The notes: generated from the letters alone by a model not told the origin. A stretch of 64,000 nucleotides of DNA from Candidatus Saccharimonadota bacterium (GCA_017405245.1 JAFRAU010000008.1:1-64000), one strand, 5' to 3'. Counted from the first letter of the stretch, positions 1-64,000 are shown. Made by a program: numbers and translations.

Positions 1-1440
1 ATCCTCTCAGGTACTTATTCTAACACTCTACTCTTTACTGCTGCGGCTAATCCTCCGTATGTGGGGTATACGTTAAAGTTCAATCCTAACATTGATGGCG
101 CCGGAGGGTCAGGGTCTGGCAGTGATATTGCATCCAATATGCCAGCTACTATGACAGAAACCGTCATGGCTACGTCCTACAAGTTTACAGTACCTAGTAC
201 GGTGCCGACTAGACCAGGATACAGGTTCATTGGATGGAGCAAGGTAGCAGCTCACACTATGGGTACTCCTAACCCTAAGGATAATGGTTCTGGGACAGAC
301 AATCTCTATGTAGCAGGAGATAAGATAGAAGTAGTAGCGGAAGACATGAGTGATCTTTCTGACGTTAAGGCAGAAGCTACTATCTATGCTATTTGGGCTA
401 ATGAATATACTTATACGATTACCTATAACTGTAATTCTGGAAGTGGTTGTCCTTCCAACTTCTCTACTAGTGAAATCACTTCTTCTTATACTTATACTAT
501 TTCTAGTACGGAACCGACTAGAACTAACTATAACTTTACTGGCTATCTAGGGTCTGATGGTACGACTTACCAGGCAGGCGCAAATGTAGCACTAAGTTCT
601 AGCAAGCTTTCTGTAACACTTACGGCACAGTGGGAACAATCTGCCCCGGCGTTCTTTACTATCACTTATATGCAGGATATGACACCTAGTGTCTGTGACT
701 CGGTCACGACCCCGGCAATATCAGCCACTACATCAGATACTACTGGTGCTTATAATGGCAATACTAGTTACGTGCCAGAAACTACCTTAATAGATTATCG
801 TGGTACAGACGGTACCGGTACTGCAAGTAGTCCTGCGACTGGCTCTAATAAAAGAACCTATACCGTCAGAAAACTAGCGGATGGCAACTGCTGGATGGCA
901 GAAAACCTGAAACTTACCCTCACTAACAACCAATCGGTATTAGTCGGTACCTTCTCTGGTGGAGAAACCAGTTGGACACCAACAGGAGATGGAGCGGGAA
1001 ACGACTACAATGAGGCAATCAACGCTAATACCAAGGCTGATGTAAATGGTGGTAACTGGTACTACCCTTGGTACGCTGCCACTGCTGGGCAAGGAGCACA
1101 AACTAGTAATCCTACCATTTCCCAATCTATCTGTCCTAAGGGTTGGAAGCTACCAAATGGCGGCGCTAATACCGCTCCAAGCTTCCAGAGCATAGTAGAT
1201 ACCTACTCTGCCACTACACCTGATAAAATCAAAGCTGCACCTTTATCCTATACTGCGGTCGGCAGCTACTACTCCGGCAGTCCGGCCAATACGTCCTACG
1301 GTTACTACTGGTCAGCTAGTCCTTATACTAGCACTAGTAACTACGCGTACGGTCTGCGCTTCACTACAAGTAGCGTCGGCCCCCAGGGCAACAGCAGCAA
1401 CTACCGCGGGTTTTCCGTCCGTTGTGTTGCTATTCCTTAG
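1..1440 (+). CDS. DGR1 variable target protein, 5' partial
   Basis: The reading frame is open from base 1, so the start lies before the window; the first in-frame GTG at 61 is not a credible start. Two InlB-type B-repeat-like modules come first (conserved PTRPGYRFIGW and PTRTNYNFTGY, each ending in a W-containing strand). A FISUMP-like C-type-lectin fold follows (CWMAENLKL, CPKGWKLPNGG, YYWSAS, SVRCVAIP). The last ~62 codons are the variable repeat. The protein is probably surface exposed and binds a ligand through its diversified C-terminus; that role is inferred from known DGR targets. The residues before the first B-repeat (GTYSNTLLFTA) match a module in the DGR2 target at 36698-38752, so the two targets are related. 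Confidence 0.88.
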   Translation: MLSGTYSNTLLFTAAANPPYVGYTLKFNPNIDGAGGSGSGSDIASNMPATMTETVMATSYKFTVPSTVPTRPGYRFIGWSKVAAHTMGTPNPKDNGSGTDNLYVAGDKIEVVAEDMSDLSDVKAEATIYAIWANEYTYTITYNCNSGSGCPSNFSTSEITSSYTYTISSTEPTRTNYNFTGYLGSDGTTYQAGANVALSSSKLSVTLTAQWEQSAPAFFTITYMQDMTPSVCDSVTTPAISATTSDTTGAYNGNTSYVPETTLIDYRGTDGTGTASSPATGSNKRTYTVRKLADGNCWMAENLKLTLTNNQSVLVGTFSGGETSWTPTGDGAGNDYNEAINANTKADVNGGNWYYPWYAATAGQGAQTSNPTISQSICPKGWKLPNGGANTAPSFQSIVDTYSATTPDKIKAAPLSYTAVGSYYSGSPANTSYGYYWSASPYTSTSNYAYGLRFTTSSVGPQGNSSNYRGFSVRCVAIP

Positions 1441-1468
1441 TCTCGCCGCTTTTCGCCGCGCGATCTCT
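1254..1468 (+). repeat. DGR1 variable repeat (VR1)
   Basis: This 215-bp segment aligns without gaps to the reverse complement of 3718-3932. I count 22 differences; 21 fall where the template has A, replaced by G, T or C, and one is G to C. Changed codons are almost all template AAC/AAT codons in the target C-terminus. The last ~60 bp, including the stop codon and 28 bp beyond it, are identical to the template and would act as the homing region. Adenine-specific replacement is the diagnostic mark of DGR mutagenic retrohoming. Confidence 0.96.
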
Positions 1469-1676
1469 AACCCAATTGAAAGAGAAAGAGCGATAGTGAA
1501 AAATAGAGCAAAATGGAACAGGAAAATGCAAGTGAAAATTGCATAAAAAGAAGAAAAAGTAGTCCTAGAAAGCATAAATGAAGGTTGCACAAAGGAGAAA
1601 AAGAATAGCTCTAATGAAATGCAAGTAGAGATTGCAGAAAAAGTTTTTGATAAAAAGTATAAAGCTAGGTGAGAAC
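1469..1676 (+). other. Spacer between VR1 and accessory gene
   Basis: No gene is visible. The region is purine-rich. Two similar segments, near 1531-1552 and 1619-1636, carry ATGCAA followed by TTGCA, so each could fold as a short hairpin. No GC-rich hairpin like the one after VR2 is visible next to VR1. Confidence 0.5.
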
Positions 1677-2513
1677 ATGAGAAAAGGTTTGGGAAAAAGA
1701 AAAGATGACCAAATAAGAAAATCAATGAAAGGTAGAGCGGAGAAAGCTGCCTATGATCACCGTAAAGAACAGGTGATGGAACGCGAGAAAGAGAATGACA
1801 AATTAATAATTTTGTTCAGGTCTAATGAAAACTGGTGGAAGATAGCAGGAAACTCTGTACTCTACTATACTAAATTGGTGGCTCCGAGGCTGAAAAAAAG
1901 TGTGAAAGTTTGGCCAGATAGAGATTATGTAGCGCCGTCTAAGGAGGGTATTGTCCAAGTTCGAGATTTGAAAAAGTTTATTGACGAGGTAGAATCTTTG
2001 AATTATACAATTAAGCCAGGAACAGGCGAAGACTACTTGGCGGTAGAACTGGGGTATAAAGTGACTCAGGAAGAGCTTAATACCATGGTGGAAGAAGAAT
2101 CGCGAAAATGGGAGATGTCGGATAGGATGTTAATGCCGGCTGTAATTTGGCCGACGATTAAAACATTGTTACTTGAAATTTTAAGAACGATGTGGGAGAT
2201 GACGAGGAAATTAGATGCGGTGGCGCAGAGAGCATTTGGCAATGAATTAATGTACTTAGTCAATGATGCGATAAAAGCATTAAGCCTTGCGGCGCACGAA
2301 AGAATGGAATCAAGGGAAGCACTAGTACAAATTACGGATGATGTAGATGAGATAGAGGGCTTAATGCTAGGTGCGACGGCGATTCGGATTTTTTCTTCTG
2401 AACAGAATTATAATCTTGCGACGACACTGATGAAATTAAAAGATGCGATTACAAAAGAAAGTAATAAAATTGAAAAAGAAGAACGAAAAAGGAAGAGACG
2501 TGAAAAAGAGTGA
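1677..2513 (+). CDS. DGR1 accessory protein, MutS-domain-I-like plus Avd-like helical bundle
   Basis: The ATG at 1677 has an AGGTGAG ribosome-binding site seven bases upstream and is preferred to the upstream TTG at 1632. The 278-aa protein has a basic N-terminus. Residues ~40-140 resemble MutS mismatch-recognition domain I (LIILFRSNENWWKIAG, with WW where MutS has the FYE aromatic). A long helical region follows (~145-255) that could be the four-helix Avd-type bundle, and the tail is highly charged. A paralogue sits in the same place in DGR2 (38970-39944). MutS-like and Avd accessory proteins are known beside DGR reverse transcriptases; Avd binds RT and template RNA. The gene overlaps the RT gene by 14 bp, so the two are probably co-translated. 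The fold assignment is by eye. Confidence 0.72.
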   Translation: MRKGLGKRKDDQIRKSMKGRAEKAAYDHRKEQVMEREKENDKLIILFRSNENWWKIAGNSVLYYTKLVAPRLKKSVKVWPDRDYVAPSKEGIVQVRDLKKFIDEVESLNYTIKPGTGEDYLAVELGYKVTQEELNTMVEEESRKWEMSDRMLMPAVIWPTIKTLLLEILRTMWEMTRKLDAVAQRAFGNELMYLVNDAIKALSLAAHERMESREALVQITDDVDEIEGLMLGATAIRIFSSEQNYNLATTLMKLKDAITKESNKIEKEERKRKRREKE

Positions 2514-3624
2514 CGGTACTTTTTGGGATAAAATTAATGAAGAGTGGTTGTCGCATAGCCTTTATATTGCATTTTTGGAAGCGCGTAAAGGAAAACTAAA
2601 AACGGCTGATGAGTATAACTTTGAAATATATTGGAGAGAAAATATCAGACGGTTGACGAGATGTATTCTGGATAAGAAGTATGAACCAAGTAGAAGCGTT
2701 GCTTTTATAATTAGAAAGCCAGTGATTAGAGAAATTTTTGCGGCGCCGTTTAGAGATAGAGTAGTACATCATCTTTTATATAATGAAGTTGCGGAGTGGT
2801 GGGACAGGAGACTAATAAATAATTCTTTTTCTTGCAGAAAGGAAAAGGGCGTACTCTATGGAATAAAAAGATTAGAAAAAGATATTGCTAGGGCATCAAA
2901 TAATTATACTAAAAAAGCGTACGTGATTAAGTTGGATGTACAAGGGTATTTTATGAGTTTGTCGAGAAGAGACCTTTTTAAGAGAGCGGTGTGGGGACTT
3001 AAAAAGCAATTTCCAAGGAGAGGGCCGAAATATCAACTGCTAAAATATCTGTGGCACCAAATAATTTTTGACGATCCAGTAAAGGGCGTAAGGCTAAGAA
3101 GACCGCTTGATTCATGGAAAGATTTGGCGGTGAATAAAAGCTTGTTGCATCAGCCAAAAGGTAGAGGGATTGTGATTGGTAATTTATCGTCGCAGCTTCT
3201 TTCTAATATCTATCTGGATTTGCTCGATAGATTTGTGAAACAAAAATTGGGGTATAAATATTATGGTAGATATGTAGATGATTTTTATATAGTTGTATCG
3301 GAAGAAGACTATTTGCAGGCAAAGAGAGATATAAAAGTGATAGAAGAATATCTTTTATCACTAGGACTAATATTACACCCTAAGAAACGTTATATTCAGA
3401 GCATTGATAAGGGTGTAAATTTTTTAGGGATGGTGTTATATCCACATAAGATTGTACCTGGGAAAAGATTCAAGGGAGAATTTTATAAGGCGGTACATGA
3501 ATGCGTGATGGGGCATCGTAAAACAGAAGCAATTATCTCATACCTCGGATATTGCAAACATTGTAATGCAAAAATGCTATGCAAGAAGATGTTTGATAGT
3601 GTAGGATGGGAGTATAGATATTGA
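2500..3624 (+). CDS. DGR1 reverse transcriptase
   Basis: Start is GTG 2500, nine bases after a GGAAGAG site, and it aligns with the N-terminus of the DGR2 RT; the upstream ATG at 2443 lies inside the accessory gene. The 374-aa protein shows the RT palm: LDVQGYF near residue 145, IGNLSSQ near 226 and the catalytic YVDD near 258. The IGxxxSQ motif is typical of DGR RTs, where group II introns and retrons have QGxxxSP. No maturase or endonuclease domain is present. It would copy TR1 RNA with adenine infidelity into cDNA that replaces VR1. Its C-terminus (DSVGWEY) is shared with the DGR2 RT. Confidence 0.95.
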   Translation: MKKSDGTFWDKINEEWLSHSLYIAFLEARKGKLKTADEYNFEIYWRENIRRLTRCILDKKYEPSRSVAFIIRKPVIREIFAAPFRDRVVHHLLYNEVAEWWDRRLINNSFSCRKEKGVLYGIKRLEKDIARASNNYTKKAYVIKLDVQGYFMSLSRRDLFKRAVWGLKKQFPRRGPKYQLLKYLWHQIIFDDPVKGVRLRRPLDSWKDLAVNKSLLHQPKGRGIVIGNLSSQLLSNIYLDLLDRFVKQKLGYKYYGRYVDDFYIVVSEEDYLQAKRDIKVIEEYLLSLGLILHPKKRYIQSIDKGVNFLGMVLYPHKIVPGKRFKGEFYKAVHECVMGHRKTEAIISYLGYCKHCNAKMLCKKMFDSVGWEYRY

Positions 3625-3717: not shown

Positions 3718-3932
3718 AGAGATCGCGCGGCGAAAAGCGGCGAGACTAAGGAATAGCAACACAACGGACGGAAAACCCGTTGTTCTTGTTGTTGTTGTTC
3801 TGGGGGTTGACGCTACTTGTATTGAAGTTCAGATTGTACGCGTTGTTACTATTGCTAGTATAAGGACTAGCTGACCAGTAGTAACCGTTGGACGTATTGT
3901 TCGGACTGCCGGAGTTGTAGTTGCCGACCGCA
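3718..3932 (-). repeat. DGR1 template repeat (TR1), antisense to RT
   Basis: Read on the minus strand, this is the invariant template for VR1: same 215-bp length, no indels, with clustered AAC/AAT codons where VR1 has varied residues. It lies 93 bp downstream of the RT stop and points towards it, so TR RNA and RT mRNA would be convergent. In the best-studied DGRs TR usually lies on the RT strand. Confidence 0.95.
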
Positions 3933-24080: not shown

Positions 24081-24191
24081 AGGAAATCCACGTAAATAGT
24101 TTTTCCATTCAGCTAATATGCAATTAGGCATTTTGTTGCAGTGTGAACTGACGTTTATGAATGGAAAAATCTATTTACGTAAGGATTTCCT
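24081..24191 (+). repeat. Long bulged hairpin upstream of parA (copy A)
   Basis: A 31-nt arm (24081-24111) pairs with a 34-nt arm (24158-24191): 9 bp, a two-base TT bulge on the 3' arm, 10 bp, a one-base bulge, 12 bp. The 46-nt loop (24112-24157) starts GCTAATATGCAATT and ends with GCAGTGTGAACTGACGTTTA, which can form a small CAGT-GTGA-ACTG hairpin. A second copy at 25951-26060 keeps the loop and the outer stem but has a different, still complementary, inner stem. Confidence 0.85.
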
Positions 24192-25950: not shown

Positions 25951-26060
25951 AGGAAATTCACGACACCAAGTTTTCTGCCCTGCTAATATGCAATTCGTCA
26001 TCATCGTGCAGTGTGAACTGACGTTTAAGGGCTGAAAACTTGGCGTCGTAAGAATTTCCT
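25951..26060 (+). repeat. Long bulged hairpin downstream of parB (copy B)
   Basis: A 31-nt arm (25951-25981) pairs with a 33-nt arm (26028-26060), with the same two-base TT bulge nine pairs in as copy A. The 46-nt loop (25982-26027) matches copy A except in its middle. Inner stem bases differ from copy A but remain complementary apart from two mismatches. It separates convergent parB and rel and may also end transcription. Confidence 0.85.
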
Positions 26061-36329: not shown

Positions 36330-36391
36330 CCAGTCTGCATAGCCTGACTCCGGAAAATGATTCTGGTCGGGGAGCCCGCGGGAGGGATTGC
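36330..36391 (+). repeat. 62-bp direct repeat, copy 1
   Basis: This 62-bp segment recurs exactly at 36483-36544. It is GC-rich against an AT-rich background (contains GACTCCGGAAAATG and GGAGCCCGCGGGAGGG). A hairpin CCGTAGG/CCTACGG (36299-36320) lies just before it. Confidence 0.9.
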
Positions 36392-36482: not shown

Positions 36483-36544
36483 CCAGTCTGCATAGCCTGA
36501 CTCCGGAAAATGATTCTGGTCGGGGAGCCCGCGGGAGGGATTGC
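36483..36544 (+). repeat. 62-bp direct repeat, copy 2, plus partial third
   Basis: It is identical to 36330-36391. A truncated third copy (GACTCCGGAAAA, ~36549) follows. The pair lies 56 bp before the promoter of the DGR2 target gene. I see no gene in 36279-36599. Confidence 0.9.
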
Positions 36545-36697: not shown

Positions 36698-38752
36698 ATG
36701 GGCAAAATAAATCAGCCTAATCGGACGCGCGGTAGCCTAGCTAGTAGATCGAGGCTAGGGATAATCGCACGCTTCAAGGGTTCGAGGACGGCTAGAAAGA
36801 TCTTTACGGGTGCAGTACCAGTATTTTTGCTGGCGTTTGTGGCGGCTTTTATGTCGACATCAATTTTTGCTCCGGCAGAATTGTCGGATGCGGCAACACA
36901 AGTTAGTGCAACACTAAACGAGGTCGATTACTTTATCAACATTGACTCTGAGGCGGTAGCTATCAATGTTGATGCATATCCTGGTGAAGGTAGAACATCA
37001 GTTGTAAAGAGCACAGTTAAAACTAAGACAAATGCGCCGGGTGGCTATAAGTTATATCTCGGTATGGATTCCTCTGCGACTAGCACTGGTCTCTGTCTTG
37101 AAACGGATTCGTCTGAGTGTATAAGTACTCTGACGGCGGCGACACCTGCGTCGCAGTCGGTACTAGCGGCGAATACCTGGGGCTATGCAATTTCAAGTAG
37201 TTCTTCTGGGGTACCAAGTACTTGGACGACGGTACCGTCAGTCGTGACTAATGCGGTTCCGTCTGAGGTCACACAGACTTTTGCGGCCGTACCGGAGAGC
37301 GGTGATGATCAGCTAATCCAGAGTGGTAGCGCAAATGCGACATCAGCTTCTGATACCAACTATACTCCCGTAGATGTGTATTATGGAGTTCGTGCAACGA
37401 TTGCTAAGCCGGCTGGTACTTATTCTAATACAGTAGCTTATACAGCAGTAGGGAACGCATCTACTACTCCGACTGTCTTTGGACTTTCACCGGCGACTTA
37501 TGCTAGGCCGTCGACACTTTCAGCATCAAGTGTAGGAACAGCATCAACACAGACACTAGTTGCGACTACTAGTATTTATACTAACTGGCCGGGGGCTAGT
37601 ACACCAGAAACTGCTCCGACAATTACCTTAACTGGTGGACCAAAGAACACGACTTATACTTGTACGAATCCAACACAGTACGTAGAAAATAGTGTGCTAA
37701 AAGTATCCTGTACACTCCCACAGGCTTATGCGGCAAACTATACTATGAGGATTCAGGTACCGGATTTTGGCATTGACTATTCGCAACCATATCAGTATAC
37801 AACTACTTGGTCAACCGTATCGTTCATGCAGGAGATGCCATTCGGGCCGTCTACGACGACAACTACATCTAGCCCTACTAACCAAAAAGTTTGTGATACG
37901 GCAGGTACAGTAACAACTTCTATGGTAAACGCAACGTCAGCGAAGGTGCCAGAAGTGTTCCTAGCGGATGTGAGAAGTGCGGATAAAGGTGGCTATATTC
38001 AGAGCGGCAAATATCGCATTAGAAAGCTCGCAGACCAGCACTGCTGGATGACAGAGAACTATGCCTTCCCACAACAGACTTCGCAGTATTATTACAGCTA
38101 TGATACCAACCTTACTCAGGATATGGGTTCAAGTCTCGGATATACGACTCTTAGTAGCGGTGTAATCAGGTGGAGACCATCTAATAACTACATCACACAA
38201 AGCGATCTAACATCTTGTCCATCTGGTGGTCCGACAGATACGACTGTGACGAATGATCACACCTACTATGGCTACGGCTCATCATGTAGCTCTGATACAG
38301 CGACTACGGCCGATACGACTTCGACTTCTGGTCAAGCAGCAGAAACACAAAAGATTGGTGCCTACTACAACTGGGCTGCGGCAACAGCTAGGTCTGGTGG
38401 CGACAGTGGGGATGCGCCAAACAGTGTGTGTCCGTACGGATGGAGACTACCGAGCGGCGGAAGTAGCAGTACAGATTATTCCTTCGCAAAGCTCATGAAT
38501 ACTTATGGGTATGGCAACAACTCCACCGGCTCTACCAAAGCCCGCCGGTATCCGCTTTCGTATATATTCTCCGGCAACTACTACTGGGGTAATGGTAACC
38601 TGAACAATCAGGGCGCGTACGGCTACTGGTGGTCTACTTCGGCGTATTCTAGTACCAATGCTTACCATTTGTACATGAATAGCTCGGTACTTAGTCCGCA
38701 GCATAACAATAATAAGGCCTACGGCTTTTCTCTCCGTTGCGTCGCCCTCTAA
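36698..38752 (+). CDS. DGR2 variable target protein, surface FISUMP/C-type-lectin-like
   Basis: The 684-aa protein has a basic N-terminus and a signal or anchor helix (GAVPVFLLAFVAAFMSTSIF, ~45-65). A Ser/Thr-rich beta domain follows with GTYSNTVAYTAVGN (~240), then an Ig-like linker and a FISUMP domain (~385-684; LADQHCWMTENY, CPYGWRLPSGG, YWWSTS, SLRCVAL). Its last ~70 codons are VR2. The fold matches known DGR targets, where varied residues line the ligand-binding face. It is probably displayed on the cell surface; the ligand (host cell or phage) is unknown. Confidence 0.92.
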   Translation: MGKINQPNRTRGSLASRSRLGIIARFKGSRTARKIFTGAVPVFLLAFVAAFMSTSIFAPAELSDAATQVSATLNEVDYFINIDSEAVAINVDAYPGEGRTSVVKSTVKTKTNAPGGYKLYLGMDSSATSTGLCLETDSSECISTLTAATPASQSVLAANTWGYAISSSSSGVPSTWTTVPSVVTNAVPSEVTQTFAAVPESGDDQLIQSGSANATSASDTNYTPVDVYYGVRATIAKPAGTYSNTVAYTAVGNASTTPTVFGLSPATYARPSTLSASSVGTASTQTLVATTSIYTNWPGASTPETAPTITLTGGPKNTTYTCTNPTQYVENSVLKVSCTLPQAYAANYTMRIQVPDFGIDYSQPYQYTTTWSTVSFMQEMPFGPSTTTTTSSPTNQKVCDTAGTVTTSMVNATSAKVPEVFLADVRSADKGGYIQSGKYRIRKLADQHCWMTENYAFPQQTSQYYYSYDTNLTQDMGSSLGYTTLSSGVIRWRPSNNYITQSDLTSCPSGGPTDTTVTNDHTYYGYGSSCSSDTATTADTTSTSGQAAETQKIGAYYNWAAATARSGGDSGDAPNSVCPYGWRLPSGGSSSTDYSFAKLMNTYGYGNNSTGSTKARRYPLSYIFSGNYYWGNGNLNNQGAYGYWWSTSAYSSTNAYHLYMNSSVLSPQHNNNKAYGFSLRCVAL

Positions 38753-38756
38753 TTAG
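38544..38756 (+). repeat. DGR2 variable repeat (VR2)
   Basis: This 213-bp segment aligns without gaps to the reverse complement of 41251-41463. I count 14 differences, every one at a template A (to G, T or C). The last ~27 bp, including the stop, are identical to the template although they contain A residues, which fits the homing region where cDNA starts. Confidence 0.96.
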
Positions 38757-38765
38757 CAACCTGGC

Positions 38766-38785
38766 GGTGCGACCTCTGTCGCACC
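38766..38785 (+). promoter_or_regulatory. Hairpin just downstream of VR2
   Basis: GGTGCGAC, CTCT, GTCGCACC: an eight-bp stem with a four-nt loop, nine bases after VR2 ends. In Bordetella phage BPP-1 a hairpin of similar size just past VR is needed for efficient homing. Confidence 0.75.
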
Positions 38786-38818
38786 CCAAGTTGCGAGAGA
38801 AAACGGTGGAAAAGTGAG

Positions 38819-38887
38819 CCCTTGGACCATAGATTTCCACGGGGACAAGCGAAGCGCTGTTCCCTGGAAATCTGGTATCACCAAGGG
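38819..38887 (+). repeat. Long imperfect hairpin between VR2 and accessory gene
   Basis: CCCTTGG pairs with CCAAGGG (38881-38887), AGATTTCCA with TGGAAATCT, then GGGACA with TGTTCC and AGCG with CGCT. The near-continuous stem covers 69 bp. It may stabilise the target mRNA end or regulate the RT operon. Confidence 0.75.
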
Positions 38888-38969
38888 CGAACGCCGTAAG
38901 ATGGAGCAAAGAAAGTAAAAGTAAAATTTTTTCCTGAAATTGAATAGACTAAACCAACTGGGAGATAAA

Positions 38970-39944
38970 ATGGTCAAGCAAGCGCAACTGCCACTAAAAA
39001 TAGAATCAAAAAAGGGAATTCCCGCGCCTGTGGCGCGGCAAATTTTTAGCTCGAAAAATAAGGTAGCTAAGAAAGTAGTACCTAAGAAGAAGGCATATGA
39101 TAGACTGATGGAACAAGTGGAAGAATATGACAAGAAAAGACTGAAACAAAAGAATGATGAGAAGGCGGCAGTGCAGAGAAAAATTGCGACGAGGTACCAA
39201 GAGATAAAGTCGAAAGTATTTGAAATGGAAATGACTAATAATTCACGAGTGATAGTCTTTTCTTCTGGACCAGGGTGGTATAAAATTGGCGGAAAATCCG
39301 CCCTTATTTATGTCCACATGCTGGCGCCAAGAATCGGGATAGAGCCTTCGATTAAAATAGACCGGGATTTTTATTCTAAATTCGAAGAGGGAATAGTCTC
39401 AATAAGACACCTGGACCTGTTGAAAGAAAACTTTGAGAAAATCGGGGTGAAGGTAGAGAGCGAGACTAGCGAGATGGTGATATTCAAGCTAGAAAAGCCA
39501 GTGACGAAGACGGAAATGAGGACGATTAAGAATATCAGGGACGAGAGGGAACAGAGGGTTAATCAAATTGTGGAAACAAAGAAAGTCTACCCTTCTATTT
39601 CTGCTTTAATGCGCAAAATTAATCAAGATATGCGCAATAAATATATTCATTGCGCGGGAAATGATAGGACCTATATTATAGAAGACCTTGCGAAGACGAC
39701 ACTGAAATCGACGGTGGATTTGACGTTAATATCTAATGGTGTGATTGAAGCAAGGAACGGTCTTCTTGTGATTTATAAGAGAAATGAGGAATTGAAGGCT
39801 TACCTCATGAATCTAATGGAACTCGGAATATTCGAAGTGAAAGAAACGCTAAGAATGGAAAATGATTTGGTGGATGTAAACACCATGATTAAAGCTGAGC
39901 TGAAAAAGATAGGAGGAAAGAATAATGATACCGGAAAGGTATAA
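38970..39944 (+). CDS. DGR2 accessory protein, MutS-domain-I-like plus helical bundle
   Basis: ATG 38970 follows GGGAG by five bases. The 324-aa protein has a long basic N-terminus (KNKVAKKVVPKKKAYDRLMEQ), a MutS-domain-I-like region (~95-190; RVIVFSSGPGWYKIGGKSALIYVHMLAP) and a helical C-terminal part (~215-310; YPSISALMRKINQDMRNKYIHC). It is a paralogue of 1677-2513 in the same operon position. The predicted role is RNA or RT binding during mutagenic retrohoming. It overlaps the RT gene by 20 bp. Confidence 0.72.
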   Translation: MVKQAQLPLKIESKKGIPAPVARQIFSSKNKVAKKVVPKKKAYDRLMEQVEEYDKKRLKQKNDEKAAVQRKIATRYQEIKSKVFEMEMTNNSRVIVFSSGPGWYKIGGKSALIYVHMLAPRIGIEPSIKIDRDFYSKFEEGIVSIRHLDLLKENFEKIGVKVESETSEMVIFKLEKPVTKTEMRTIKNIRDEREQRVNQIVETKKVYPSISALMRKINQDMRNKYIHCAGNDRTYIIEDLAKTTLKSTVDLTLISNGVIEARNGLLVIYKRNEELKAYLMNLMELGIFEVKETLRMENDLVDVNTMIKAELKKIGGKNNDTGKV

Positions 39945-41082
39945 GAGACGCAACGGCCAGGAATTTTCTGAATGGCTATTTCACATGCTTTTCTTGGCAT
40001 ATTTAGATGCGAGGAAAGGAAAGCGAAAGACCGAAGATGAGAAGAAGTTTGAAGAAAATGCAGTGGAAAATTTGCTGAGACTAAGAGATGATATTTTGGA
40101 AAGGAAGTATGAGCCAAGTGCCGGGATAGCTTTTACAGTGCATGATCCGGTGCTGAGAGAAATTTTTGCGGCGCCGTTTAGAGATAGGGTGGTGCATCAT
40201 TTTATTTATAATATGGTGGCAGAATGGTGGGACAAGCGGCTAATATATGATTCTTATTCTTGTAGAGTGGGGAAAGGTGTGCTGAAAGGAATACAGAGGC
40301 TCAGAAAGCAGGAAAATTCGGCAATCAGAGAGTTCAAGGAGCCAGTCTATATTGTGAAGATGGATATACAGGGATATTTTATGAGCTTACCAAGGAAAAA
40401 TTTGTATGAGCAGGCAGTAGAAGGATTAAAACAACAATTTGGAAACAGTAGAGTGGAGACAAACGGACACGAGAAATGGCCACGAGAGTATTATGTGATA
40501 AAGTATTTGTGGCGAAAAATTATTTTTGACGACCCGACTAAGGGAGTGAAAAAGCGGGGTAATCCGAAAGAGTGGCTAGTAATGCCGACTTCTAAGAGCC
40601 TGTTTTGCCAGCCGGAAGGTATTGGCATAGTGATTGGGAATTTGTCGTCGCAGCTACTTTCTAATATTTATTTAGATGCACTGGATAGATATATAAAATT
40701 TACGTTAGGATATAAATACTATGGTAGATACGTGGACGATTTTTTCATTTTAGTTCCTAAAAGTAAGTTAGAGATGGCGATGCGAGATGTGGAGGTGATA
40801 CGAGTGTTTTTATCTGGACTAGGGCTAAAACTTCATCCGAAAAAGCTTTACGTGCAGAATATTAATCGGGGTACGACGTTCCTCGGTACGAGAGTGTATC
40901 CGAATCGGATTTTGCCAGGGCCGAGAATTGTGAAGCGGTACAAGTTGGCGGTAAGAAAAGTAGCGAATGGACGAGCGGATATTAGTACACTAGTATCCTA
41001 TATGGGGCTAGTAAAACATTTTAAGTCGACGAAAATTCAGAAGAAGATTTTTGATAGCGTGGGGTGGGAATATAACGCGTAA
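39925..41082 (+). CDS. DGR2 reverse transcriptase
   Basis: ATG 39925 follows GGAGG. The 385-aa RT has MDIQGYF, IGNLSSQ near residue 237 and YVDD near 269, and aligns along its length with the DGR1 RT (shared REIFAAPFRDRVVHH, GYKYYGRYVDDF, DSVGWEY). The IGxxxSQ motif marks it as DGR type. It would convert TR2 RNA to A-mutated cDNA for VR2. RT1 and RT2 are similar but clearly diverged, so the duplication is not recent. Confidence 0.95.
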   Translation: MIPERYKRRNGQEFSEWLFHMLFLAYLDARKGKRKTEDEKKFEENAVENLLRLRDDILERKYEPSAGIAFTVHDPVLREIFAAPFRDRVVHHFIYNMVAEWWDKRLIYDSYSCRVGKGVLKGIQRLRKQENSAIREFKEPVYIVKMDIQGYFMSLPRKNLYEQAVEGLKQQFGNSRVETNGHEKWPREYYVIKYLWRKIIFDDPTKGVKKRGNPKEWLVMPTSKSLFCQPEGIGIVIGNLSSQLLSNIYLDALDRYIKFTLGYKYYGRYVDDFFILVPKSKLEMAMRDVEVIRVFLSGLGLKLHPKKLYVQNINRGTTFLGTRVYPNRILPGPRIVKRYKLAVRKVANGRADISTLVSYMGLVKHFKSTKIQKKIFDSVGWEYNA

Positions 41083-41094
41083 GGTTATTTTATG

Positions 41095-41219
41095 ATTTTT
41101 TGATGTCGCTTATGGCTTTTTTGATGCCGCTTATTGTTTTTTTGATGTCGCTTATGGTTTTTTTGATGTTGCTTATGGTTTTTTGATGTTGCTTATGGTT
41201 TTGGGTGTTGTTTATGGCT
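41095..41219 (+). repeat. Tandem ~21-bp repeats between RT2 and TR2
   Basis: About six degenerate copies of a unit like TTTTTTGATGTCGCTTATGG. The T-runs may end RT transcription on the plus strand, while TR2 RNA would run into them from the other side. Confidence 0.85.
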
Positions 41220-41250
41220 TCGGTGGGGGCCTGGAAAGTTCACTGAATAA

Positions 41251-41463
41251 CTAATTAGAGGGCGACGCAACGGAGAGTTAAGCCGTTGGCCTTATTATTG
41301 TTATTCTGCGGATTAAGTTCCGAGCTATTCATGTTCAAATTGTAAGCATTGGTACTAGAATTTGCCGAAGTAGACCACCAGTTGCCGTTCGTGCCCTGAT
41401 TGTTCAGGTTACCATTACCCCAGTAGTAGTTGCCGGAGAATATATACGAAAGCGGATACTGGC
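41251..41463 (-). repeat. DGR2 template repeat (TR2), antisense to RT
   Basis: Minus-strand template for VR2, 213 bp, no indels, with AAC/AAT-type codons at varied sites. It lies 168 bp after the RT stop and points towards it, as in DGR1. TR1 and TR2 differ, so each RT probably serves its own target, though exchange is possible. Confidence 0.95.
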
Positions 41464-63698: not shown

Positions 63699-64000
63699 AT
63701 GGACACAAAAGATTATATTGGAAAAACAATAACTATCAAAATTGACCGTGCGATGGGAAGTAAACATCCAAAGCATGGGTTTATTTATCCACTAAATTAT
63801 GGCTATGTGTCGGATACGAAATCTGGTGATGGTGAGGAACTGGATGCATACCTTTTGGGTGTTTTTGAGCCGGTAGGTGAATATACTGGGAAATGTATTG
63901 CGGTAATTACGCGAAAAGATGATAATGATGATAAGTTAATCATTGTTCCAGAAGATAAAAAATATGATAAGAATCAAATTTTGGCTTTGACGGAGTTTCA
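63699..64000 (+). CDS. Divergent family I pyrophosphatase-like protein, 3' partial
   Basis: The frame runs off the window after ~100 codons. HGFIYPLNYGYVSD and GDGEELDAYLLGVFEP match the PPase core, but the signature has Glu where the first ppa (35033-35563) has Asp (DGEELD against DGDELD). VIIVPEDKK-like sequence follows. It may be a PPase paralogue with another substrate. Confidence 0.72.
   Translation, partial: MDTKDYIGKTITIKIDRAMGSKHPKHGFIYPLNYGYVSDTKSGDGEELDAYLLGVFEPVGEYTGKCIAVITRKDDNDDKLIIVPEDKKYDKNQILALTEF

What the first reader, a model, noticed from the sequence alone, without database searches (positions are those of the whole stretch)
36698..41463. Second, independent DGR in the same window
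DGR2 repeats the DGR1 layout with its own RT, accessory gene and template. All 14 VR2/TR2 differences are at template adenines. Two full DGRs within ~40 kb in a reduced genome is unusual, and RTs, accessory genes and targets are paralogous but diverged.
Basis: partly seen in the sequence, partly recalled or inferred. Interest (0 to 1): 0.85.

Follow-up and report, generated by a model that had tools for sequence, protein, structure and literature searches.

The report
DGR with a silent cassette library
A tiny host-dependent gut bacterium carries a genuine gene-mutating retroelement, and scattered around its genome are about fifty unexpressed spare copies of the mutated protein tip, as if the element's past products were stored for re-use.

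Summary
36698-41463 is a complete diversity-generating retroelement (DGR2): target gene, accessory gene, reverse transcriptase and inverted template. All 14 TR2/VR2 differences lie at template adenines. The RT is nearest to the BPP-1 DGR RT among solved structures, the accessory ends in an Avd fold, and a hairpin follows VR2. Having two DGRs is not unusual: 14 related Saccharibacteria assemblies show two or three.

The surprise lies outside the window. The genome holds about 50 further copies of VR2's start, headed by a 47-nt element that is nearly invariant, synonymous positions included. Only VR2 sits in a full-length gene. The rest are headless C-type-lectin-like tails in arrays and singles. 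About twelve differ from TR2 mainly at adenines (14-29 A changes, 2-10 others); the rest are older. 44 of 45 are open and in frame (about 14 expected). A sister species repeats this with its own element (86 copies, 80/80 open); a third has about 150 candidate segments and no RT found.

Best reading: DGR2 writes variants at one expressed adhesin, and a library of silent cassettes stores, mixes and probably returns them. Transfer into VR2 is inferred, not shown. I found no report of this in the open-access papers searched.

The parts
36698..38752 (+). Target gene 2 (684 aa): putative secretion signal at the N-terminus, C-terminal FISUMP/Fib_succ_major domain that carries VR2; the only full-length gene in the genome found to bear the cassette element
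   Evidence: Pfam PF09603 E 3.1e-8, TIGR02145 E 6.7e-11; only copy with a long in-frame N-terminus, 629 codons; signal read by eye
38521..38567 (+). 47-nt cassette element CTCCACCGGCTCNACCAAAGCCC|GCCGGTATCCGCTTTCGTATATAT; its first 23 nt are absent from TR2
   Evidence: 50 genome copies of the 32-nt core, 37 perfect, 0 in the reversed-pattern control; alignment
38544..38756 (+). Variable repeat VR2 (213 nt, through the stop codon)
   Evidence: 14/14 differences from TR2 at template A
38766..38785 (+). Hairpin GGTGCGAC-CTCT-GTCGCACC (8-bp stem, 4-nt loop), 9 nt after VR2; the position and shape known to be needed for BPP-1 homing, loop sequence not GRNA
   Evidence: BPP-1 precedent PMC3240598
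38970..39944 (+). Accessory protein (324 aa): N-terminal alpha/beta domain plus C-terminal Avd-type four-helix bundle (residues 203-319)
   Evidence: AF2 pLDDT 88.6; BPP-1 Avd 4dwl Z 14.3, rmsd 1.7 over 109 residues
39925..41082 (+). Reverse transcriptase RT2 (385 aa), motifs VIGNLSSQ and YVDD
   Evidence: RVT_1; family profile best PDB hit 8ub7 BPP-1 DGR RT E 2.2e-32, next 2e-9; alignment
41093..41217 (+). Five-copy ~21-nt tandem repeat between RT2 and TR2 (would lie 3' of TR in the TR RNA); role unknown
41251..41463 (-). Template repeat TR2, sense on the minus strand
   Evidence: TR opposite to the RT in 56 of 57 related loci
1254..1468 (+). VR1 of DGR1 (target gene 61-1440)
   Evidence: 21/22 differences at A
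1632..2513 (+). Accessory gene of DGR1
   Evidence: 26% to ACC2, E 7e-18
2443..3624 (+). RT1 of DGR1
3718..3932 (-). TR1 of DGR1

Best explanation
DGR2 is a working-type DGR: TR2 RNA is copied by RT2 with its Avd-fold partner, adenines are miscopied, and the cDNA replaces VR2, the tip of one secreted C-lectin-like adhesin (the mechanism is established for BPP-1; here its marks are shown). Around this one expression site the genome keeps a library of about 50 headless cassettes. Each is a 47-nt constant start, a 180-200 nt variable tip and a short tail. The cassettes descend from DGR2-written variants (shown for about a dozen, inferred for the older ones), stay coding-competent (shown) and have exchanged or re-acquired segments (shown for four pairs, two species). 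The proposed function is a silent donor archive: stored tips recombine into VR2 through the constant start, and new tips written by DGR2 enter the library (both inferred).
For: DGR2. Cassette origin: against TR2 the twelve closest cassettes show 14-29 A changes with only 2-10 other changes, e.g. C19:1282 20 A / 2 other. Cassettes carry 23 nt of target gene that TR2 lacks, so they derive from VR-type DNA and not from template alone. Silent: only VR2 has an N-terminal domain in frame (629 codons; median upstream extension 23 codons; 13 of 51 have any ATG there). Coding constraint: 44/45 open and in frame against 14.3 expected, 15/16 indels in frame, P 8e-7; at non-template-A sites third codon positions vary about twice as much as first and second. 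Element conserved beyond protein need: third-position variability 0.035 against 0.28 in the body. Replicated in G071: 86 copies of its own element, A-biased youngest copies, 35/35 indels in frame (P 2e-17), 80/80 open. G030 has three cassette families, DGR-type NNC/NNT codons and 17/17 open frames in the family tested, but no RT found. Chimeras: C51:3478/C19:13477 and three G071 pairs share a 5' part and differ in the 3' part.
Against: No cassette-to-VR2 transfer was seen: VR2 is TR2 with A changes only, so its present state came from the DGR. An apparent match between G071's expressed VR and a cassette proved to be the same gene split between two contigs. All four chimeras share the 5' part, which fits 3'-anchored retrohoming into cassettes as well as recombination anchored on the 5' element. 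The cassettes keep only about 9-17 nt of 3' identity with VR2 in this genome. Promoters were not tested.
Confidence: 0.52

Rival explanations
1. The cassettes are extra targets that DGR2 rewrites in place (a one-template, about fifty-target DGR in trans); storage and return to VR2 play no part.
For: A-only or nearly A-only marks in a dozen cassettes; chimeras with independent A-only 3' halves on a shared 5' half, as partial retrohoming would leave; G071 tail-to-tail cassette pairs form 7-9 bp hairpins with 4-6 nt loops; trans writing is seen for DGR1 at the C41 gene, 19 A / 2 other.
Against: Cassettes have no N-terminal domain, so rewriting them alone has no product; none of 45 cassettes in this genome has a perfect hairpin of 7 bp or more just downstream, while VR2 has one; their 3' homology to TR2 stops early; most are far too diverged at non-A sites to be current targets.
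Confidence: 0.23
2. Site-specific shuffling (shufflon- or integron-like): the 47-nt element is a recombination site and a tyrosine recombinase moves or inverts cassettes into the target gene.
For: Sharp left edge and near-invariant element with a single free base; direct and convergent arrangements; units that carry other genes, including CdiA_C-like nucleases; two tyrosine recombinases, one on array contig C19.
Against: No recombinase beside arrays or target; G071's and G030's elements differ in sequence; chimeras break inside the body, not at the element.
Confidence: 0.15
3. Relics: dead copies of VR ends scattered by recombination, with no role.
For: Mostly no start codons, many insertion sites, some next to CLec gene ends.
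Against: Open frames far above expectation in two genomes and in-frame-only indels; divergence of the coding kind; element conserved at silent sites. Young copies of an expressed gene could pass some of these tests, but not the diverged ones.
Confidence: 0.1

Closest known systems
Saccharibacteria/CPR cellular DGRs (Patescibacteria clade 2 and other CPR lineages; PMC8144416, PMC10907252)
   Same: RT, Avd-fold accessory, A-specific TR/VR, FISUMP/C-lectin-like target; TR downstream of the RT on the opposite strand, which is the norm here (56 of 57)
   Different: To my knowledge published CPR DGRs are described with one or a few complete targets; here one complete target is accompanied by about 50-86 headless VR cassettes
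Bordetella phage BPP-1 DGR
   Same: RT family, Avd fold, hairpin after VR, template-adenine mutagenesis
   Different: Avd has an extra N-terminal domain here; inverted TR; no cassette library in BPP-1
Silent-cassette antigenic variation: vlsE of Borrelia, pilE/pilS of Neisseria, TprK of Treponema (53 donor cassettes, PMC10063172)
   Same: One expression site, many headless silent copies with shared flanks and preserved frames (vls: PMC11499132), mosaic sequences
   Different: In those systems no reverse transcriptase is involved (own knowledge); here one supplies new sequence. Transfer to the expression site is not shown here
Thiohalocapsa PB-PSB1 multi-DGR genome (PMC10907252)
   Same: Several DGRs and remote targets in one genome
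   Different: 15 target genes, not silent fragments

Membership tests
Diversity-generating retroelement | TR/VR pair that differs only or mainly at template adenines | tested here: met
   14/14, P about 3e-8
Diversity-generating retroelement | RT of the DGR group with intact catalytic motif | tested here: met
   Nearest solved RT is the BPP-1 DGR RT (E 2.2e-32 against 2e-9 for the next); YVDD and LSSQ motifs
Diversity-generating retroelement | Avd-type accessory protein | tested here: met
   Residues 203-319 match 4dwl Avd, Z 14.3; helical bundles give high Z in general, but S23-family and DGR Avd chains top the list
Diversity-generating retroelement | Hairpin/cruciform just downstream of VR | tested here: met
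   8-bp stem, 4-nt loop, 9 nt from VR2; loop CTCT is not the phage consensus GRNA
Diversity-generating retroelement | C-type-lectin or similar fold in the target | tested here: inconclusive
   FISUMP/Fib_succ_major profile match; AF2 model failed, pLDDT 41; no PDB sequence match
Diversity-generating retroelement | Active retrohoming | not testable with these tools
   No reads; a related locus pair shows A-site VR divergence with near-identical TRs
Silent-cassette antigenic variation (vls/pilS/tprK kind) | Single full-length expression site plus many headless copies | tested here: met
Silent-cassette antigenic variation (vls/pilS/tprK kind) | Preserved reading frames and shared flanking sequence in silent copies | tested here: met
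Silent-cassette antigenic variation (vls/pilS/tprK kind) | Segmental mosaicism among copies | tested here: met
   Four chimeric pairs; retrohoming could also produce them
Silent-cassette antigenic variation (vls/pilS/tprK kind) | Gene conversion from silent copy into the expression site | not testable with these tools
   Needs population or time-series long reads
Integron | Integrase gene adjacent to the array | tested here: not met
   Nearest tyrosine recombinase is about 8 kb from the C19 array, the other on another contig
Shufflon | Recombinase inverting segments between short inverted sites in the expressed gene | tested here: inconclusive
   Convergent cassettes exist, but none adjoins VR2

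The most novel reading that the evidence does not exclude
A heritable archive for retroelement-made variants: the DGR invents receptor tips at one expression site, successful tips are banked as silent cassettes, and the bank feeds recombination back into the site. It would be a prokaryotic write-store-recall system for surface recognition that can outlive its reverse transcriptase (G030).
Probability: 0.35. Interest if true: 0.93.

Novelty: new variant of a known kind. Interest (0 to 1): 0.77.

Why it matters
A DGR on its own forgets: each round overwrites the last variant. A library of preserved DGR products around a single expression site would give such a system memory and let recombination mix retro-made variants, joining two diversification strategies known, as far as I can tell, only apart. 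It occurs in host-dependent ultra-small bacteria whose means of recognising hosts are poorly known, and it can be tested directly with long-read metagenomes of ruminant gut samples. It also warns that surveys that look only near the RT miss these fragments.

Tried and rejected
(1) Contig C31's three-cassette array was first counted as a second array type; one end is 99.9% identical over 1213 nt to G071 and the other also matches G071, so it is treated as contamination. (2) A 59-nt identity between G071's expressed VR and a 'cassette' looked like gene conversion, but the upstream sequence is the same gene split between contigs C12 and C29; dropped. (3) The first open-frame count for G071 (0/80) was a frame error of mine; corrected to 80/80. 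(4) AF2 of the target's C-terminal domain failed (pLDDT 41), so no fold claim. (5) Motif CAGTGAACTTTCCA just 3' of TR is shared by DGR2, G071 and RGIG5655 only (3 of 28): clade-specific, not general. (6) Papers on DGRs with cassettes, silent donors, cassette arrays or Saccharibacteria antigenic variation: nothing describing this found; two key DGR surveys asked for by DOI are not held, so prior description is not excluded. (8) Long upstream extensions in some G071 cassettes probably come from frames that run on through neighbouring cassettes (inferred), so they are not taken as N-terminal domains.

Full report
WHAT IS THERE. The window is contig C17 of an 810-kb, 51-contig genome (92% complete, 3.8% contamination). 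RT relatives are Candidatus Saccharibacteria MAGs, mostly from ruminant guts. Between 36698 and 41463 lie a 684-aa target gene, an accessory gene, an RT gene and a template repeat on the opposite strand. TR2 and VR2 are 213 nt long and differ at 14 positions, all adenines in TR2 (chance about 3e-8). The RT family's nearest solved structure by far is the BPP-1 DGR RT, and it has YVDD and LSSQ motifs. The accessory gene has no Pfam or NCBIfam hit, but its confident model (pLDDT 88.6) ends in an Avd-type four-helix bundle (4dwl, Z 14.3) behind an alpha/beta domain that I did not identify. An 8-bp hairpin with a 4-nt loop follows VR2 by 9 nt, where BPP-1 needs one (PMC3240598). DGR2 is therefore a genuine member of the DGR family.

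IS THE PAIR UNUSUAL? No. Of the 80 best related loci, 14 assemblies supply two or three (counted), and literature records multiple DGRs in CPR bacteria (PMC10907252). RT1 and RT2 group with different RTs of the same sister genome G071, so they are old paralogues. The inverted TR is the rule: 56 of 57 related loci. Two more RTs on contigs C44 and C45 may be contaminants: C44 is 96.6% identical to a contig of another MAG over 3.8 kb.

THE LIBRARY. Searching the genome with TR2 gave 57 matches, many in arrays on C19 and C51 at roughly 220-300 nt spacing, others singly on other contigs, one just past the window's end (C17:64057-64260). Most begin with the same element, CTCCACCGGCTCNACCAAAGCCC GCCGGTATCCGCTTTCGTATATAT: 50 copies of the 32-nt core with at most three mismatches, 37 perfect, none in the control. 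The first 23 nt belong to the target gene and are absent from TR2. A variable C-lectin-like tip follows, then CTCTCCGTT and a short tail of a few recurring types. Only the window's target gene joins this element to a protein; the copies as a whole have a median of 23 open codons upstream.

WHERE THE CASSETTES COME FROM. Against TR2, the twelve closest cassettes have 14-29 changes at its 59 adenines in the compared stretch and 2-10 at all other positions, which is the DGR's mark. Others have 16-55 non-adenine changes and must be older or stem from earlier templates; some share non-A changes with each other, as copies of an older template would.

ARE THEY ALIVE? In 45 cassettes with a clear end, 44 are open and in frame, against 14.3 expected if the same non-A changes fell at random (log10 P -28), and 15 of 16 length changes keep the frame (P 8e-7). 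Outside template adenines, third codon positions vary about twice as much as the others. The element is conserved at silent positions too, so it is constrained as DNA. The random-placement test assumes TR2 as the ancestor, which is only approximate for old cassettes.

OTHER SPECIES. G071 (RGIG2364, goat ileum) has the orthologous DGR2 (RT 72% identical) and 86 copies of its own element. Its youngest cassettes are A-biased, 35 of 35 length changes are in frame, and 80 of 80 are open. Many stand tail to tail. G030 (97% complete) has about 150 candidate segments, three cassette families in the stretches read, each with its own constant start, and DGR-type hypervariable NNC/NNT codons, yet no RT by two searches. 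Its RT may be lost or simply unbinned.

HOW IT MAY WORK. Shown: DGR2 is intact; cassettes carry its marks; they stay coding; segments have been exchanged or rewritten. In the four chimeric pairs the 5' part is shared and the 3' part differs (C51:3478 with C19:13477; three in G071). In one G071 pair both 3' parts are nearly A-only but independent. This fits repeated 3'-anchored retrohoming on a line of cassettes, or copying of successive states of one expressed gene, or recombination anchored on the 5' element. In this genome the cassettes lack the downstream hairpin (0 of 45 with a stem of 7 bp or more), which speaks against efficient in-place writing; in G071 some tail-to-tail junctions do form hairpins, so it is not excluded there. 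Inferred: that cassettes return to VR2 by recombination, that the protein is a surface adhesin, and that variation helps in binding hosts or evading something.

NOVELTY. Each half is known: DGRs, and silent-cassette antigenic variation (vls, pilS, TprK; PMC11499132, PMC10063172). I found no report of the two together in the open-access papers held; two key DGR surveys were not readable. I class it as a new variant of a known kind and keep the write-store-recall reading as the novel case.

Noticed in passing
G000 C17:64057-64260 (just beyond the window's end at 64000; L067): Single TR2-type cassette at the contig end; the only copy that keeps the template's A at position 4 of TR.
   Followed up: yes
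L064 15171-15587; L065 1642-2100, 2088-2423, 2957-3394: Other genes sit inside cassette arrays: two CdiA_C-like nucleases, a DUF5674 protein and an unknown, like cargo or toxin-antitoxin genes.
   Followed up: partly
L075 (C41) 1926-2110: Full-length CLec gene elsewhere in the genome differs from TR1 at 19 A and only 2 other sites: DGR1 appears to write in trans.
   Followed up: partly
G000 C5:28608, C23:14642, C41:2310 (in L072, L073, L075): Cassettes lie tail to tail against the 3' ends of DGR1-type CLec genes, with the junction at or near the stop codon.
   Followed up: partly
window 36330-36391 and 36483-36544: Perfect 62-nt direct repeat just upstream of the target gene.
   Followed up: no
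window 24081-24168 and 25951-26038: 88-nt direct repeat, 74% identical, flanking two genes.
   Followed up: no
L005 (C44) versus L123 (RGIG8814): TRs differ by 1 nt while VRs differ at 26 sites, 24 at template A: a sign of DGR activity between near-identical loci.
   Followed up: yes
accessory protein, window 38970-39944, residues 39-201: A conserved alpha/beta domain fused in front of the Avd bundle; it recalls MutS domain I by eye, untested.
   Followed up: no
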